DNA of 43,470 nucleotides from an uncultured Eubacterium sp. (GTDB taxonomy: Bacteria > Bacillota_A > Clostridia > Lachnospirales > Lachnospiraceae): contig CAOKJJ010000019.1 of the NCBI GenBank assembly GCA_948468465.1, forward strand, positions 1 to 43,470, in the 5' to 3' direction. The notes beneath the pieces are model-generated. The model made no database searches. It saw nothing but the letters and a program-made list of their open reading frames with translations, and was not told where the DNA came from. Positions 8,891 through 22,441 of the stretch are shown one piece after another. Every line of letters starts with the position of its first letter. Positions within the stretch are counted from its first letter, which is position 1. A program made the position numbers and the translations under genes.

Positions 8891-9823
8891 TTATGCTGAT
8901 ATTGCCATCTGATACGCCTTGTCAATCATCGGGTTCCCTTCCGCTGTTTTCAAAAACAGGTTTTCCCTGTAATTTTTCGTTTTCCGCACCGGCTCCGCAT
9001 GTGTAGCAAAATCTGATACTGCATTGACAAAACGGTATCCGTTCTTCCCCGTATCCTGCAGATCAGGAGCGTCAAAATACCTGGCCTTCATATCATTTAA
9101 CAGAATGATATTATTTTTCTTCTGCGCTGCGCTCATATCTTCCGTAACCGGAAAGAACTCAGACATATACTCCATCACTTTCTTATCACTCAGCTTCTTA
9201 TGTACCAGGACATCCACGCCCCTGCCCATCTCCGCCATATATTTTTCTGCAAACTGCAGCGTCATTTTTGCATCATCAATCCTGCCCATGATATTTGATG
9301 TATGTTTTGTCATCCAGACGCGCTTTGCCGTACGCAGTGCCAGGTTTAATGTATTCTGGCATACAACCCGTACCGGTGTCATCGCTGCCTTGATGGAACA
9401 GCTCCCATCGTGGGAGTTCATAATGACAAAATATGGTGCGATCTCATCCCCGGCAATGATAAATCTCTCCGGCAGCCTTGCCAGGATAAACGTACGCCTG
9501 CCATCCTGCAGGGAGCCGGCCGTTTCATAGCGGACTCCTTCGCCGAGCAGTTCATCCGTAAATGCAAAGGCTTCCTCATTCTGCACAACCTGGTAACGGT
9601 CACTGACGACCCCCAGTACCCGCTGGTCACAATCCCTTACATTCGCCTTGTATCCAAATACCGGAATCCCGCTATCTGTCAGCATCTCCTGCTGTCCCAC
9701 TTTCCAATCAAGCCCTGCCAGGCGCACAGCCTCCCTGGAATTTGGGGCATCCTCCACAACTGTGCCAATCCCATGCCAAGGCTTTACTCTTACCGAAAAC
9801 ATCGTTTCTACTGCTGCTGCCAT
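8891..9823 (-). CDS. DUF932 family (phage/plasmid-like, TIGR03299-type) protein
   Basis: The predicted protein has 310 residues. The N-terminal block VETMFSVRVKPWHGIGTVVE and the central NSHDGSCSIKAAMTPVRVVC are characteristic of the DUF932/TIGR03299 family, found in phages, plasmids and integrative elements. Its biochemical role is unknown. A GGGGG ribosome site precedes the ATG and lies inside the end of a 43-codon gene that stops one base upstream. Translation is therefore likely coupled. Its place after the recombination genes is usual for such elements. Confidence 0.85.
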   Translation of the reverse strand: MAAAVETMFSVRVKPWHGIGTVVEDAPNSREAVRLAGLDWKVGQQEMLTDSGIPVFGYKANVRDCDQRVLGVVSDRYQVVQNEEAFAFTDELLGEGVRYETAGSLQDGRRTFILARLPERFIIAGDEIAPYFVIMNSHDGSCSIKAAMTPVRVVCQNTLNLALRTAKRVWMTKHTSNIMGRIDDAKMTLQFAEKYMAEMGRGVDVLVHKKLSDKKVMEYMSEFFPVTEDMSAAQKKNNIILLNDMKARYFDAPDLQDTGKNGYRFVNAVSDFATHAEPVRKTKNYRENLFLKTAEGNPMIDKAYQMAISA

Positions 9824-9824
9824 A

Positions 9825-9956
9825 TTATTTTCCCCCTTTTCTTCCTTCCCTGCCTGCTGCTTCCATAAGTGACAGTACGGCTGCGCATACTGCTGCCAGT
9901 ACTTTTACCAGTACCCTGACCATGTTCCTGCCTGTTTTCGTTAACAAATCCTGCAT
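9825..9956 (-). CDS. 43-residue hydrophobic, cationic-tailed peptide
   Basis: An ATG at 9956 follows a near-perfect AGGAGG site and opens a 43-codon frame ending one base before the DUF932 start. The peptide has a hydrophobic helix (VRVLVKVLAAVCAAVLSLM) and a basic tail (REGRKGGK). The layout and composition resemble the 30-residue peptide at 11843-11935, which ends one base before the YqaJ gene. It could be a small membrane peptide, a leader coupling translation, or both. I do not recognise a family. Confidence 0.65.
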   Translation of the reverse strand: MQDLLTKTGRNMVRVLVKVLAAVCAAVLSLMEAAGREGRKGGK

Positions 9957-9986
9957 ATAGAACCTCCTCTGTCCCTGAATTTTTTC

Positions 9987-10790
9987 TTATGCTACATCAT
10001 TCACCGATTTTGTTTTCGCAAGTGCTTTCATAACCCGACTGTACATTTCCTTAGACATATCCTGTGCCTGATCAAACCCATATCTGCCCCTCACTGCATC
10101 CATGCCGACACCTGTACGCTGCAATTCTGTCTCCAAAATATGCAGCTGCTGGTCACTGATTCCTCTTTCCTGCTTTCCTGCCCGCTGTTTTTCCTCAGTC
10201 CCGCCGGATTTACGCGGCTCCAAAGAATTTTGTTCCTGTACCCTGCCGGATTTACAAGGTTCAAGCACTCCTGTTTTCGAATGCAGTTCAAAAACAACCT
10301 TTCCATTTTTCGAATCATTCACGATCCGCAGAGAAATAATCTCTCTGTCCTCATTATAACTAATGGACGCCACACAAAAGCGGTCACTGCAGTAAAATTT
10401 TCCATCCTTCCGCCGGATATCTGCATCTTTGGAAGGCACCCATATAAATGGTGCAGAATATAATTCCCTTCCAATCCCCCAGTTAAAGCAGGCCCTTTTG
10501 AAGCTGTCAGATGCCTGTGATTTTTCTTTTTCATAGTTTCCAATGGTTCCTACATCCTGTTTTGCCACCCACCGCCCGGATTCCTGGTCATACACTTCCA
10601 CTATACAGTACAGGCTCCCGTTGATACACTGATGGGTGCGCTGCCATCCGAACATCCCAAATGTCTCATCCAGAATGCGCTGATCTACCCGCGCATCTTT
10701 ATATAACAGAATGCTCAGTCCTTTTTCACTTACGGATGCCGTCCGGCATTCAATCTCGTCTGCACGCAGCAAACGTATCTGTTTTTCCAT
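9987..10790 (-). CDS. Rad52-like single-strand annealing protein
   Basis: The predicted protein has 267 residues. The ATG at 10790 is preferred because AAAGGG lies about 9 bases upstream. The first 150 residues carry a pattern seen in Rad52/22-family and related single-strand annealing proteins of mobile elements: ECRxAxVxEKGLSILLYKDARVD, then WQRTHQCINGSLYCIVEVYD, then SQASDSFKRACFNWGIGREL. The C-terminal 80 residues are charged, low in complexity and probably a flexible tether. Together with the upstream YqaJ-type exonuclease it would form a two-component recombination system like Red-beta/Exo. It would anneal the single-stranded DNA that the nuclease makes during replication or integration of the element. 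Confidence 0.7.
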   Translation of the reverse strand: MEKQIRLLRADEIECRTASVSEKGLSILLYKDARVDQRILDETFGMFGWQRTHQCINGSLYCIVEVYDQESGRWVAKQDVGTIGNYEKEKSQASDSFKRACFNWGIGRELYSAPFIWVPSKDADIRRKDGKFYCSDRFCVASISYNEDREIISLRIVNDSKNGKVVFELHSKTGVLEPCKSGRVQEQNSLEPRKSGGTEEKQRAGKQERGISDQQLHILETELQRTGVGMDAVRGRYGFDQAQDMSKEMYSRVMKALAKTKSVNDVA

Positions 10791-10837
10791 AAGACTTTTC
10801 CCTTTCGTATTCATATTTGGCAATGCATTATAAAATA

Positions 10838-10868
10838 AGCAGGAAACGCTTTTCTATGCGTTCCTGCT
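10838..10868 (-). terminator. Hairpin between the exonuclease and annealing-protein genes
   Basis: AGCAGGAA(A)CGC pairs with GCGTTCCTGCT; read leftward it is followed by TATTTTATAA. It lies 44 bp beyond the YqaJ stop. It could be a partial terminator or processing site that sets the ratio of the two proteins. Confidence 0.55.
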
Positions 10869-10911
10869 CATAGCCTGCAACTGCCTTACCTATTGGAATC
10901 AGATTCTGCTT

Positions 10912-11841
10912 TCATGCCGCCCGGATCTGGAACCGTCTGGAACTGACTTCCTGTGTATAATTCTGGTAAACTTCTGGAAGTTCTTCTTTGAGACGTCCAG
11001 TATCCAACCTTGCAGAAGATACATGGTTCCATGTGATACGGTATTTTTCACTGGCGGCACGCTCATGATCTTTCATGAACAGCTTCACTTCCTGCTCAAT
11101 CCGCTTTTGTTCTTCCTGCAGTTTCTTTACTTCTGCGGCGATCTTTGCACGACGTTCCAGTTTCTCATCAAATCCAGTCATCTTCAATAGGCCCTTCTTC
11201 CCTGCCGTATGGAAATACTGATTCAGGACTTCATCACAGATTTCGGAACCGTCTGGATCAGGGATAGCTCCCGGCACAACATGCCTGCACCAGAAATTTT
11301 CTTCTGTTTCTACAAGCGCCATGATCAGGTCATCATCCCAGACCAGTTTCCGATAGGTAAATTCCCGTCCCAGAATCACCACCGCCAGATACCAGACCTT
11401 CTTATTTAAGACGGCCATATAATGATAACACTGCATCATATAATGCAGAGGGATGTTCCCATCCTTCCATTTATCCGCCTGATATGCGTTGGCCGTCTTG
11501 CATTCTAACCCTGCATCTTCCCCGATCACAAGCCGATCCACGTCTGCGATCATAAACGGATGTTCCACACTGCGGTACATATAATTGGAACGCCTCACCT
11601 TAAACCCGGTCGCTTCCATAAACCGTTTTGCCACATAATCCTCCAGGTCATGGCCAATGCGCACCGCTTCGCTGCTGATCTCTTCCACTTCCTCCGATGT
11701 CTTGTCATAAAACACTTTCATCGGACTGCTGTACGGGTGCAAGCCGCACACTGCCCCTGCATCCGAGCCGCCAATTCCTGCCTTTCTTAAGCGCAGCCAT
11801 TCTTCACGGCTCATACCTGCTGTTGGAATCCTCTCATACAT
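10912..11841 (-). CDS. YqaJ-type viral recombinase / lambda-Exo-like exonuclease
   Basis: The predicted protein has 309 residues. The N-terminus RLRKAGIGGSDAGAVCGLHP is the YqaJ family hallmark. Residues around 100-120 (MIADVDRLV...AGLECKTAN) supply the PD-(D/E)XK core, with D, E and K in place. The C-terminal third (ERRAKIAAEVKKLQEEQKRI) is a coiled coil. Members degrade one strand of duplex ends 5' to 3' and feed an annealing protein. It is the first large gene after promoter-like DNA at about 12008-12025, preceded by a 30-codon gene that ends one base before its ATG. Confidence 0.88.
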   Translation of the reverse strand: MYERIPTAGMSREEWLRLRKAGIGGSDAGAVCGLHPYSSPMKVFYDKTSEEVEEISSEAVRIGHDLEDYVAKRFMEATGFKVRRSNYMYRSVEHPFMIADVDRLVIGEDAGLECKTANAYQADKWKDGNIPLHYMMQCYHYMAVLNKKVWYLAVVILGREFTYRKLVWDDDLIMALVETEENFWCRHVVPGAIPDPDGSEICDEVLNQYFHTAGKKGLLKMTGFDEKLERRAKIAAEVKKLQEEQKRIEQEVKLFMKDHERAASEKYRITWNHVSSARLDTGRLKEELPEVYQNYTQEVSSRRFQIRAA

Positions 11842-11842
11842 C

Positions 11843-11935
11843 TTACTTCCCTCCTTCCAGTTTTTTTGCCGCCCAGATGATCAGGCTGGCCGCTGCTTTT
11901 CCCGCAAGTTTCAAAATCTTCATTCCTGTCTGCAT
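11843..11935 (-). CDS. 30-residue amphipathic/hydrophobic peptide
   Basis: An AGGAGG site precedes the ATG at 11935, and the 30-codon frame stops one base before the YqaJ start. The peptide (MQTGMKILKLAGKAAASLII, then WAAKKLEGGK) starts with MQ, has a hydrophobic helix and ends in a basic GGK tail, like the 43-residue peptide at 9825-9956. The ribosome site of the exonuclease gene lies inside its last codons. A membrane-active or leader role is possible but unproven. Confidence 0.65.
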   Translation of the reverse strand: MQTGMKILKLAGKAAASLIIWAAKKLEGGK

Positions 11936-12007: not shown

Positions 12008-12025
12008 CACTGAGATAATATATCA
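12008..12025 (-). promoter_or_regulatory. Shared promoter-like motif, copy 1
   Basis: Read leftward, TGATATATTATCTC(A)GTG lies about 75 bp upstream of the 30-codon gene and YqaJ. It contains TATTAT, usable as a -10 hexamer, with TTCATT 16 bp upstream. The same 18-mer, with one difference, recurs at 15746-15763 in front of another leftward gene. Confidence 0.55.
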
Positions 12026-12082: not shown

Positions 12083-12118
12083 TAAAAAAATAAGCGGTGC
12101 CGCATCCCGGCATCCGCT
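12083..12118 (-). terminator. Intrinsic terminator of the upstream leftward genes
   Basis: AGCGG(T)GCCG pairs with CGGC(AT)CCGCT. Read leftward it is followed by TATTTTTTTATG. It lies about 35 bp past the stop of the gene at 12153-12635 and ends that transcription unit before the YqaJ promoter. Confidence 0.8.
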
Positions 12119-12904: not shown

Positions 12905-13153
12905 TTATCTTTTTACAAGCCGTATATATTTATCCCCCGCCCCGGCCTCGACATTATAATTTTTTAAAACCGCAAGAAGTACAGATGCTGACAGCATACA
13001 AAGACTGATATCCGCTGTCGCAATACCAGCAGCTGCCACAGCCGCCGGCAGCACTGCAGGAGCTGCAAACAATGACGCTGGTGTAGCCGATGCAGCAAGC
13101 ACTGGCAGCAACGCCGCCACTGCAGCAGGTTTCAGCTTACACATCCATTTCAT
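12905..13153 (-). CDS. 82-residue Ala-rich hydrophobic protein, translationally coupled
   Basis: The ATG at 13153 overlaps the TGA of the preceding gene (ATGA). The protein opens with a basic MKWMCKLKPAAV, then has about 50 residues of Ala-, Leu- and Val-rich sequence that could form two membrane helices, and ends in a charged tail (DKYIRLVKR). Together with the upstream 38-residue product it reads like one protein split in two frames. Membrane location is likely; function unknown. Confidence 0.6.
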   Translation of the reverse strand: MKWMCKLKPAAVAALLPVLAASATPASLFAAPAVLPAAVAAAGIATADISLCMLSASVLLAVLKNYNVEAGAGDKYIRLVKR

Positions 13154-13266
13154 TTTTTTGCCAGACCTCCCTTTACTTCGATACATGGCGCCTTATCTTT
13201 CATTGCTTTTTCTAATTCATTTTTTGTAGTAACTACAATAACACTACCTGTTTTTTTTCCAAACAT
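13150..13266 (-). CDS. 38-residue protein upstream of and overlapping the hydrophobic protein
   Basis: GGAAGGG lies 9 bases before the ATG at 13266. The product (MFGKKTGSVIVVTTKNELEK and AMKDKAPCIEVKGGLAKK) has a beta-alpha-beta look and ends in the 4-base ATGA overlap with the next start. A sequence running IEVKGGLAKK straight into MKWMCKLKP makes sense as one polypeptide, so this may be a natural split or a frameshifted ancestral gene. Confidence 0.6.
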   Translation of the reverse strand: MFGKKTGSVIVVTTKNELEKAMKDKAPCIEVKGGLAKK

Positions 13267-15418: not shown

Positions 15419-15649
15419 TCATTCCGTTTCTGTTTCTTCCCTCATTTCCTGCAGCATCTTTTCTGTATTTGCCTGGATCTGCTTTACTGCATATCCTATG
15501 CATGTAATACAGTCCAAAGTCTGCTTCTCCATCTTCTCGCACGCTAATCCAAGACAGATCGTATCAACCGTATGCACCAGGACAGACAATCGGTTACACA
15601 CATCTTCCAAACAGGATACCGCACAGGAAAAGCCTTCATGTACATTCAT
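15419..15649 (-). CDS. 76-residue Cys-rich helical protein
   Basis: AGGGGG lies before the ATG at 15649. The product contains several Cys residues (FSCAVSCLEDVCNRL, LDCITCIGYA) and ends in an acidic helix (TEKMLQEMREETETE). It converges on the XRE gene with 14 bp between stops. The motif shared with the YqaJ promoter (15746-15763) lies about 100 bp upstream. Function unknown. Confidence 0.55.
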   Translation of the reverse strand: MNVHEGFSCAVSCLEDVCNRLSVLVHTVDTICLGLACEKMEKQTLDCITCIGYAVKQIQANTEKMLQEMREETETE

Positions 15650-15745: not shown

Positions 15746-15763
15746 CACAGAGATAATATATCA
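15746..15763 (-). promoter_or_regulatory. Shared promoter-like motif, copy 2
   Basis: Read leftward it is TGATATATTATCTC(T)GTG, 17 of 18 bases identical to 12008-12025, and it lies upstream of the gene at 15419-15649. A common -10 plus downstream activator or repressor contact is suggested. Confidence 0.5.
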
Positions 15764-21152: not shown

Positions 21153-21193
21153 AAAAGGTATGCTACACTATATTGCATAGCAGCATGCCTTTT
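21153..21193 (+). promoter_or_regulatory. Long hairpin in the integrase leader
   Basis: AAAAGGTATGCTACA (21153-21167) can pair, allowing G-U, with the complementary arm at 21179-21193 (AGCAGCATGCCTTTT), leaving an 11-base loop. It lies between the ATPase stop and the integrase ribosome site. The second arm also matches 5009-5023 at the left element end in inverted orientation. It could be an attenuator or terminator, or an Int/Xis binding site. Confidence 0.55.
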
Positions 21194-21214
21194 CCATTGA
21201 AAAGGAGTATTACA

Positions 21215-22441
21215 ATGAAAGGCACTATACAAACCAAAACTACAAAAAAAGGCATTGATTATATTTATATTTATTTAAGCTACGCAGATCCTGTTACCCA
21301 GAAGCGGAAGCAAAAAGTAGTTTCAACCGGACTCCCGGCCAAAGGCAACAAACGGAAAGCCGAGGCCATGATCAAAGATTACATTGAGAAATACCAGTAT
21401 CTGGAAATCCCTAAAACAGACACACTTATTGATAACCATATCAGCCTGTGCGACTTCCTCGACTATTGGCTGTCCGGCAAAAAACTGGAACTTCGCCAGT
21501 CTACCTATGAAGGGTATGCCTGCCGCATCCATTCCATCAAAAAGTATTTTGAAAAAAAGAATCCTGAACTGATCGCATTGACGCCAAAGGATTTCAACGA
21601 TTTCTTCAAATACTCCCTGGAATACGGCAAAATAAACCAAAAAACACGCAAACGGGAACCGCTGGCCGTCCGATCTGTCAGAAGCTACCGCAGTATTCTC
21701 CATGCGGCTTATAACGAAGCTATCATCAACGGGATTATAAACACAAATCCGCTGGATACAGTCGTCGTGCATGGCAAAAAGAACCGTGAGTATAATGAGG
21801 AATATTATTTTCTGACAGAAGAAGAAATATCAGATGTACTTCATTTTATGAACCGAAGCTATCCTCGTCTGGTCGGAATTGCCTTTATGGGTGCTTATTA
21901 TGGATTACGACGCTCGGAAATTCTGGGCTTGAAATGGGATGCTATAGACTGGGAAAGAAAAACCATCTCCATACAGCATACCGTTGTCCGCGTAACTTCT
22001 GTCATGACAGAAGATGCTACCAAGACACAGGCAGGAGCCAGGGTGCTGAACCTTTTTGATACAGCGAGAAGCTGCCTGCAGCGGATTAAGCAGGAACAGG
22101 ATGCAAATAAGGCTTTCTTCGGAAATACCTATGCAAACCACGACGGCTATATTTTCACATGGGAAGACGGACACCCATATGACCCGAATTATGTTTCACG
22201 CATGTTCACAAAAGCCATGACATACTATGGCCGTCCAGAGATCACACTGCACAATCTGCGGCATACATGCTGTTCCATGCTGATCAACCGCGGATGGGAC
22301 TTAAAAAAACTGCAGTACTGGATGGGACACAGTGATGCCTCCACAACGCTAAATATTTATTCCCACTTCAACCGGAAACGATTAAATGAAAGTGAGAATG
22401 ACCTGAACAGCATTTCGGCGGCGGCATCAGACCTGTTCTAA
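21215..22441 (+). CDS. int: Tyrosine recombinase (integrase)
   Basis: The predicted protein has 408 residues. The ATG at 21215 follows AAAGGAG; an in-frame ATG 14 codons upstream lacks a site. An arm-binding domain (about 1-60) and a SAM-like core-binding domain (about 75-180) precede the catalytic domain. The catalytic residues are R232 (GLRRSE), H346-x-x-R349 (HNLRHT), H372 (WMGHSD) and Y382 (NIYSH). It is Tn916/phage-type in layout, catalysing site-specific integration and excision. It ends 55 bp from the attR repeat, which it presumably recognises at the tRNA-Pro anticodon region. The older remnant at 4498-4641 is a homolog. Confidence 0.95.
   Translation: MKGTIQTKTTKKGIDYIYIYLSYADPVTQKRKQKVVSTGLPAKGNKRKAEAMIKDYIEKYQYLEIPKTDTLIDNHISLCDFLDYWLSGKKLELRQSTYEGYACRIHSIKKYFEKKNPELIALTPKDFNDFFKYSLEYGKINQKTRKREPLAVRSVRSYRSILHAAYNEAIINGIINTNPLDTVVVHGKKNREYNEEYYFLTEEEISDVLHFMNRSYPRLVGIAFMGAYYGLRRSEILGLKWDAIDWERKTISIQHTVVRVTSVMTEDATKTQAGARVLNLFDTARSCLQRIKQEQDANKAFFGNTYANHDGYIFTWEDGHPYDPNYVSRMFTKAMTYYGRPEITLHNLRHTCCSMLINRGWDLKKLQYWMGHSDASTTLNIYSHFNRKRLNESENDLNSISAAASDLF

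What the first reader, a model, noticed from the sequence alone, without database searches (positions are those of the whole stretch)
9825..11935. Tiny hydrophobic, cationic-tailed peptides placed directly in front of YqaJ and DUF932 genes
Two short genes (30 and 43 codons), each with a strong AGGAGG site, end exactly one base before the next gene's ATG. Both start MQ, have one hydrophobic helix and end in a basic GGK tail. Independent repetition of the same design in one operon argues against chance. They may be membrane peptides tied to element replication, toxins of a new class, or coupling leaders.
Basis: partly seen in the sequence, partly recalled or inferred. Interest (0 to 1): 0.7.

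Follow-up and report, generated by a model that had tools for sequence, protein, structure and literature searches.

The report
Tiny helix peptides heading recombination operons
Two very small genes in a gut-bacterial mobile element look real; one belongs to a conserved kind of tiny helical peptide encoded right behind the promoter of DNA-recombination genes, but their matching tail is just the ribosome-landing site of the next gene.

Summary
On the minus strand, a 30-codon ORF (11935-11843) and a 43-codon ORF (9956-9825), each behind AGGAGG, stop one base before the ATG of YqaJ and DUF932.

The shared 'GGK' tail is not peptide design but the next gene's Shine-Dalgarno read as codons. Its G-rich core sits 8 nt before the ATG in 7 of 8 abutting cases, while its frame differs between relatives (GGK or RRK). 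The two peptides do not align.

Leader 1 is nevertheless a real gene: homologues share the consensus core GKAAAxxIIWxAxxLE, pN/pS 0.27. A promoter-like motif precedes it before YqaJ here and before DUF932 in relatives. More widely, 46 of 78 DUF932 loci (11 of 28 newly fetched) have a 23-56-residue hydrophobic ORF upstream, against 4 of 362 other genes under slightly stricter cuts. Four of five families tested show purifying selection. A terminator-like hairpin separates peptide and DUF932 in 18 of 29 longer gaps.

Leader 2 has no identified family.

Best reading: promoter-proximal single-helix peptides co-expressed with a DUF932-YqaJ-Rad52/Erf recombination cassette. Function is inferred; attenuation leader and type I-like toxin remain open.

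The parts
12098..12112 (-). terminator-like hairpin of the preceding transcription unit
   Evidence: pattern scan, (consensus match only)
12014..12024 (-). promoter-like motif GATATATTATC shared with relatives, 89 nt before leader 1
   Evidence: alignment; best matrix score in the window, 32.8 (next best apart from its own reverse complement 17.7); spacing
11843..11935 (-). leader 1: 30-codon ORF of family D (consensus core GKAAAxxIIWxAxxLE), predicted single helix
11850..11856 (-). AAGGAGG: SD of YqaJ inside the last codons of leader 1 (encodes part of the EGGK end)
10912..11841 (-). YqaJ / RecE-like recombination exonuclease (PF09588, TIGR03033, phrog_434)
9987..10823 (-). Rad52/Erf-like single-strand annealing protein (PF04098; phrog_1097)
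9825..9956 (-). leader 2: 43-codon ORF, no identified family (closest by profile: family A, weak)
9832..9836 (-). GGGGG of the DUF932 SD inside the last codons of leader 2 (encodes part of the GGK end)
8891..9823 (-). DUF932 / TIGR03299 phage-plasmid-like protein, function unknown
   Evidence: AlphaFold model without a PDB match at E 0.001 or better

Best explanation
Leader 1 is a real small-protein gene. It is one of a set of short (23-56 residue) single-helix hydrophobic or amphipathic peptides encoded promoter-proximally in the DUF932-YqaJ-Rad52/Erf recombination operon of integrated elements found mostly in Lachnospiraceae. It goes with a promoter-like motif, and in the window the gene that follows takes its Shine-Dalgarno from the peptide's last codons, so the two are probably translated together. 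Leader 2 abuts DUF932 in the same way inside the operon but has no proven family. Shown: ORF anatomy, embedded SD, recurrence before DUF932, purifying selection on several peptide families, a shared promoter-like motif, and terminator-like hairpins between peptide and DUF932 in many relatives. Inferred: that the motif is a promoter, that translation is coupled, that the peptide sits on or in the membrane, and that it is an accessory of the recombination programme (host-physiology or host-nuclease modulation, or tethering), with terminators letting the peptide outnumber DUF932 in many relatives.
For: Placement: 27 of 43 DUF932 genes tested have a small SD-led hydrophobic ORF upstream, versus 2 of 45 YqaJ, 0 of 17 Rad52 and 4 of 362 other genes; dinucleotide shuffles 0.2-0.6%. 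46 of 78 distinct DUF932 loci with slightly looser cuts; 11 of the 28 that were fetched through DUF932 and are not in the first set. Protein-level selection: family D pooled pN/pS 0.27 (window versus L060: 8 synonymous, 2 nonsynonymous), C 0.33, A 0.49, B 0.62, each with 0 of 300 random placements as low. Distant member in L113, whose DUF932 is 64.5% identical: 26.7 bits, 0 of 5300 decoys. The motif GATATATTATC with at most 2 mismatches lies upstream of 41 of 73 DUF932 genes (about 10 expected from base shuffles). It is 42-90 nt before the peptide in 22 of 25 peptide loci that have it, and 35-59 nt before DUF932 in 9 of 16 peptide-less loci that have it. The family D peptide precedes YqaJ (window, L044/L060) or DUF932 (L017, L020, L057, L113). 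In 397 genomes of one family, family A gave three matches: two in one genome, both next to DUF932, and one marginal (E 0.0087) in a genome without a DUF932 match.
Against: 32 of 78 DUF932 loci have no such ORF by these criteria, and 17 of 28 in the new set, so the peptide is dispensable for the cassette. Sequence families are related to each other only weakly. B2 shows no significant constraint (49 of 300). Net charge varies from +8 to -5. Leader 1 itself just misses the hydrophobicity cut (1.48 versus 1.5), so the window is not counted at YqaJ. Criteria were set after a first look. Leader 2 has no relatives I could read. One D-type copy (L063) has no DUF932 or YqaJ in the 3 kb held, and one A-type copy (L131) precedes another gene. 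32 of 73 loci lack the motif at 2 mismatches. No expression, localisation or phenotype data.
Confidence: 0.55

Rival explanations
1. Regulatory leader only: translating the short ORF controls the recombination operon, by coupling translation to the next SD (window, family D) or by ribosome-mediated transcription attenuation at the terminator that follows the ORF (families A and B). The peptide product itself has no job.
For: Embedded SD and 1-2 nt gap in family D. Terminator-like hairpins between peptide and DUF932 in 18 of 29 loci with a gap of 50 nt or more, 1 of 580 shuffles. In three peptide-less loci (L019, L029, L102) a terminator-like hairpin lies between the motif and DUF932 (positions), so termination control can exist without the peptide. 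The MsrDL leader works by attenuation (PMC10314930, passages).
Against: Conserved residues lie in the helix core; the last three residues vary. In 7 of 9 A-type loci the hairpin begins 81-111 nt after the stop, too far for a ribosome at the stop to cover it. The four C loci with a long gap have no terminator-like hairpin and the D gaps of 1-2 nt leave no room for one.
Confidence: 0.25
2. Toxin: the peptides are membrane toxins of the type I kind, kept by the element for its own maintenance, with an antitoxin RNA not yet seen.
For: Size below 60 residues, one hydrophobic helix, charged end, mobile-element location and divergent sequences agree with the features given in PMC6563280 and PMC8309996 (passages). 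In family A and most of B the peptide lies between its own promoter-like motif and a terminator-like hairpin.
Against: No enrichment of antisense sigma-70-type promoters: 0 of 34 regions reach 10 of 12 matches, base shuffles 3.8%. In the window and family D the peptide abuts a recombination gene rather than having its own terminator. No peptide holds the APxxxG motif quoted for Fst/Lpt (no 'AP' in any of them). No family at E 0.001 in Pfam, NCBIfam or PHROGs (weak PHROGs hits include phrog_881 holin, E 0.025, for family A and phrog_4252, E 0.008, for L008).
Confidence: 0.15
3. Chance: short ORFs that look gene-like because they run into an SD.
For: The tail does arise from the SD. Leader 2 has no readable relatives.
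Against: For leader 1, conserved homologues with excess synonymous change and a distant member exclude it. For leader 2, a strong own SD (-12.9), high hydrophobicity (2.49) and one-base spacing make it less likely but do not exclude it.
Confidence: 0.05

Closest known systems
Type I toxin peptides of Clostridia and Bacillus prophages (e.g. C. difficile CD2517.1, CD0956.2; Fst; BsrG)
   Same: Short, one hydrophobic helix, charged end, mobile-element location, little sequence similarity between families (PMC6563280, PMC8309996, passages)
   Different: No antisense promoter signal; ahead of or abutting recombination genes; acidic and basic peptides both occur; no APxxxG motif
Leader peptides of ribosome-mediated transcription attenuation (MsrDL, MefAL; PMC10314930, passages)
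   Same: Promoter-like motif, short ORF, terminator-like hairpin, then structural gene in family A and most of B
   Different: Conserved residues lie in a hydrophobic core; hairpin often about 100 nt beyond the stop; none in the window, in D, or in the C loci tested
NCBIfam 'smalltalk' (NF033879)
   Same: Very short peptide; one relative (L018) gives a weak hit, E 0.72
   Different: Below cut-off (9.7 versus 24.7 bits); not shown to be the same family
Gam-like gene next to DUF932 in crAss-like phages
   Same: DUF932 lies just after a gene annotated as Gam-like host nuclease inhibitor
   Different: No SD-led hydrophobic ORF was found in the 330 nt before DUF932 there; crAss002 has a 35-codon annotated gene in between

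Membership tests
Family D of promoter-proximal peptides (defined here) | leader 1 has the invariant residues of the core (GKAAx4IxxAxxLE) | tested here: met
   HMM 71.5 bits but leader 1 is in the model
Family D of promoter-proximal peptides (defined here) | shared promoter-like motif 80-90 nt upstream | tested here: met
   leader 1: (not visible in L044, whose contig ends 63 nt before the peptide)
Family D of promoter-proximal peptides (defined here) | leader 2 belongs to D | tested here: not met
   -0.0 bits, 1408 of 5300 decoys as high; no BLASTP alignment
Family A (MGKLKLFENILKA...) | leader 2 scores above shuffles | tested here: inconclusive
   5.4 bits; 0 of 100 own shuffles but 71 of 5300 of all decoys
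Type I toxin | small hydrophobic peptide with one helix | tested here: met
   hydrophobicity; helix predicted for leader 1 only
Type I toxin | antisense RNA antitoxin | tested here: inconclusive
   no promoter signal on the other strand of relatives; scan is weak and RNA-seq is needed
Type I toxin | toxicity on overexpression | not testable with these tools
   needs bench work
Attenuation leader | terminator between leader and structural gene | tested here: not met
   no room in the one-base gaps of the window; met in 18 of 29 relatives with gaps of 50 nt or more
Attenuation leader | conserved arrest motif at the leader's end | tested here: not met
   last residues of family D vary GGK, RRK, RRR, VGK, KK
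Translationally coupled gene pair | downstream SD inside the upstream ORF, stop close to start | tested here: met
Translationally coupled gene pair | downstream translation depends on the upstream ORF | not testable with these tools
   reporter assay needed

The most novel reading that the evidence does not exclude
A fast-diverging superfamily of single-helix peptides that is a dedicated membrane-acting partner of the DUF932-YqaJ-Rad52/Erf recombination programme (for example a host-nuclease or cell-cycle modulator made first and in excess when the operon is switched on), carried with its promoter as a module and placed ahead of whichever recombination gene comes first.
Probability: 0.3. Interest if true: 0.75.

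Novelty: new variant of a known kind. Interest (0 to 1): 0.55.

Why it matters
DUF932 is widespread in phages, plasmids and integrated elements and is still named a domain of unknown function. A recurrent, selected peptide at the head of its operon gives a handle on when the cassette is switched on and what host process it meets. No family in the three general libraries searched covers the peptides tried. It is also a caution: tails shared by ORFs that abut a gene may only be its Shine-Dalgarno.

Tried and rejected
Rejected: 'same design repeated' as evidence of kinship (SD effect; no alignment). Rejected as class features: MQ start, basic tail. Sought and not found: plasmid relatives of the DNA (phage matches weak), Rfam families (one sub-threshold hit elsewhere), antisense promoters, decayed copies in 29 peptide-less loci, a known fold for DUF932 (no match at E 0.001 or better), a solved relative of DUF932 (one hit at E 0.49), peptide patterns in viral contigs (none), hydrophobic peptides before distant DUF932 genes: none of 7 records of crAss-like phages, actinophages and plasmids passed the cuts (L119 had one hydrophobic ORF with too weak an SD, -7.4). 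Literature: searches showed no paper on small peptides before DUF932 in their listings (one search listed 20 of 3,859, 12 of 167 and 8 of 48); the ten DUF932 papers were seen as listing and abstract starts only. Read as passages: PMC6563280, PMC8309996, PMC10314930. Failed scripts: crash, redone in 39 and 87; crashed at the last, two-sequence family, after the other families were printed; wrong program options, redone in 69 and 107.

Dropped rows: L022, L048, L058, L040 as near-copies, and genes with short upstream gaps or at contig edges there (4+1 DUF932, 10 YqaJ, 25 Rad52, 136+19 other). One search left out gaps under 50 nt and still holds some near-copies (L004/L099, L025/L033). One search's later-id loci numbered 31 with 14 positive; three of these, all positive, repeat the first set, leaving 11 of 28.

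Full report
1. What is there. Both ORFs exist as described, on the minus strand. Leader 1 (11935-11843, 30 codons) stops one base before the YqaJ start at 11841; leader 2 (9956-9825, 43 codons) stops one base before the DUF932 start at 9823. Order in the direction of transcription: terminator-like hairpin (12112-12098), promoter-like motif (12024-12014), leader 1, YqaJ (RecE-like exonuclease), Rad52/Erf-like annealing protein, leader 2, DUF932/TIGR03299, DUF5688. The window holds a phage-type integrase gene (21173-22441) next to chromosomal genes such as spoVT, so I read it as an integrated element. Of 55 genome loci with a YqaJ relative, 36 record titles name Lachnospiraceae.

2. The shared tail is the next gene's SD. 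Before the next ATG the sequence reads GGAAGGAGGGAAG-TAA-g-ATG (leader 1; L044 the same with TAG), GAAAGGAGGAAG-TGA-tt-ATG (L017; similar in L020, L057) and AAAAGGGGGAAAA-TAA-t-ATG (leader 2). The GGAGG or GGGGG core is 8 nt before the ATG in 7 of the 8 abutting cases printed (also L018; L008 differs), while its reading frame moves, giving GGK, RRK or RRR in family D and other ends elsewhere. Across 133 YqaJ/DUF932 genes the four codons at that place are 71% G/K/R/E over two frames. In the distant L113 the peptide ends LEKK 29 nt before DUF932, so a basic end can exist without this cause. Leaders 1 and 2 do not align.

3. Leader 1 is a conserved peptide. Homologues were found in L044/L060, L017/L061, L020/L062, L057/L064, L063, proteins P0005 and P0006, and L113. 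Ten positions are invariant in the eight sequences. Window versus L060: 8 synonymous, 2 nonsynonymous changes; pooled pN/pS over ten pairs of five sequences 0.27; 0 of 300 random placements as low (pairs are not independent). AlphaFold gives one helix, residues 2-28, mean pLDDT 83.6. It precedes YqaJ in the window and L044 but DUF932 in L017, L020, L057 and L113. The motif stands 80-90 nt before it in the window, L017, L020 and L057 copies and, with one mismatch, about 88 nt before it in L113 (read from the alignment); the L044 contig ends too soon to tell. All 52 of 60 loci with both genes have DUF932 before YqaJ (48 of them followed by Rad52), the reverse of the window: here the first gene differs while motif and peptide are kept. 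Family D is rare: 2 of 397 genomes of one family, one of them the genome of locus L020 itself.

4. A wider class. Upstream of DUF932, a 20-50-residue ORF with a strong SD and a hydrophobic stretch occurs in 27 of 43 tested genes, against 2 of 45 YqaJ, 0 of 17 Rad52 and 4 of 362 other genes in the same loci; dinucleotide shuffles give 0.2-0.6%. The criteria followed a first look. With slightly looser cuts, 46 of 78 distinct DUF932 loci have one, and 3 of 70 YqaJ loci. Loci fetched through DUF932 and absent from the first set give 11 of 28, a lower rate than the YqaJ-selected loci. Families A, B and C have pN/pS 0.49, 0.62 and 0.33, each with 0 of 300 random placements as low; B2 is not significant, 49 of 300. 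By profile, A, B and a mixed set E recognise some of each other above shuffles; C's model recognises no other family, though E's recognises some C members; D's clearly recognises only L113. In 19 genomes or records family A gave 11 matches, 10 beside DUF932; nine of the genomes had been picked for carrying it, so the informative part is two further copies: one beside DUF932 (G358), and one (L131, in the Acetatifactor muris genome) that keeps a similar motif but precedes a gene with weak, below-cut-off SNF2/ResIII similarity. Among 397 genomes, family A hit one genome twice, both beside DUF932, and one genome marginally.

5. Promoter and terminator. The motif (at most 2 mismatches) is upstream of 41 of 73 DUF932 genes; about 10 are expected from base shuffles. 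Of these, in 25 peptide loci it is 42-90 nt before the peptide in 22; in 16 peptide-less loci it is 35-59 nt before DUF932 in 9. A matrix built without the window gives its site the highest score there (32.8). Between peptide and DUF932 a terminator-like hairpin occurs in 18 of 29 loci with a gap of 50 nt or more (1 of 580 shuffles): all ten A rows (one a near-copy), 4 of 6 B, none of 4 C, and 4 of 9 others. In A it begins 81-111 nt after the stop in 7 of 9 loci (19 and 22 nt in the others); in B 4-12 nt. In 29 peptide-less loci a hairpin occurs within 200 nt of DUF932 in 11, in three of them (L019, L029, L102) between motif and gene.

6. Leader 2. Only itself was returned (cluster of 2 sequences on 7 contigs). 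It has a strong SD and a hydrophobic helix-like stretch, sits inside the operon and not behind the motif (no site among the top matches), and is nearest to family A by a weak score. I call it probable, not proven.

7. How it works (inferred). The motif switches the operon on; the peptide is made first; in the window its translation brings ribosomes onto the YqaJ SD, and leader 2 does the same for DUF932. In many relatives the terminator would make peptide exceed DUF932. Constraint on the helix core but not on the last residues argues that the product matters; a membrane-surface or membrane helix helping the recombination programme is my choice. Attenuation and toxin remain possible (see rivals). 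Nothing here shows function.

8. Novelty. No Pfam, NCBIfam or PHROGs family reached E 0.001 for the nine peptides tried (the tenth protein there is another ORF), and the paper searches named under Tried and rejected gave no description in their listings. The parts (coupled leader ORF, small hydrophobic peptide, terminator after it) are known kinds; the recurrent link to this cassette is what appears new.

Noticed in passing
window 15752-15762 (-), before ORF 15419-15649 (-): A second copy of the GATATATTATC motif (score 17.6) about 113 nt before a 76-codon ORF with a strong SD and no Pfam match; possibly a second operon under the same control.
   Followed up: partly
L031:139 and L013:52: The same motif precedes an actin-like (ALP/MreB-like) gene in L031 and a 182-codon ORF in L013, suggesting an element-wide promoter class.
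   Followed up: partly
family A and B promoter regions (e.g. L043, L037, L021): Dyad sequences such as GTATATG-N5-CATATAC or CGTAT-N-ATACG where a -35 box would be; they look like operator sites (seen by eye).
   Followed up: no
L019, L029, L102: Terminator-like hairpin between the motif and DUF932 without a peptide ORF that passed the cuts: possibly a bare attenuator.
   Followed up: no
window 12905-13186 (-): 93-codon very hydrophobic Ala-rich ORF in the same element, no family above cut-off.
   Followed up: no
L063: Leader 1 homologue with a similar motif, near a transposase-associated gene and with no DUF932 or YqaJ in the 3 kb held.
   Followed up: partly
L114, L115 (crAss-like phages): DUF932 stands just after a gene annotated as Gam-like host nuclease inhibitor.
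   Followed up: no
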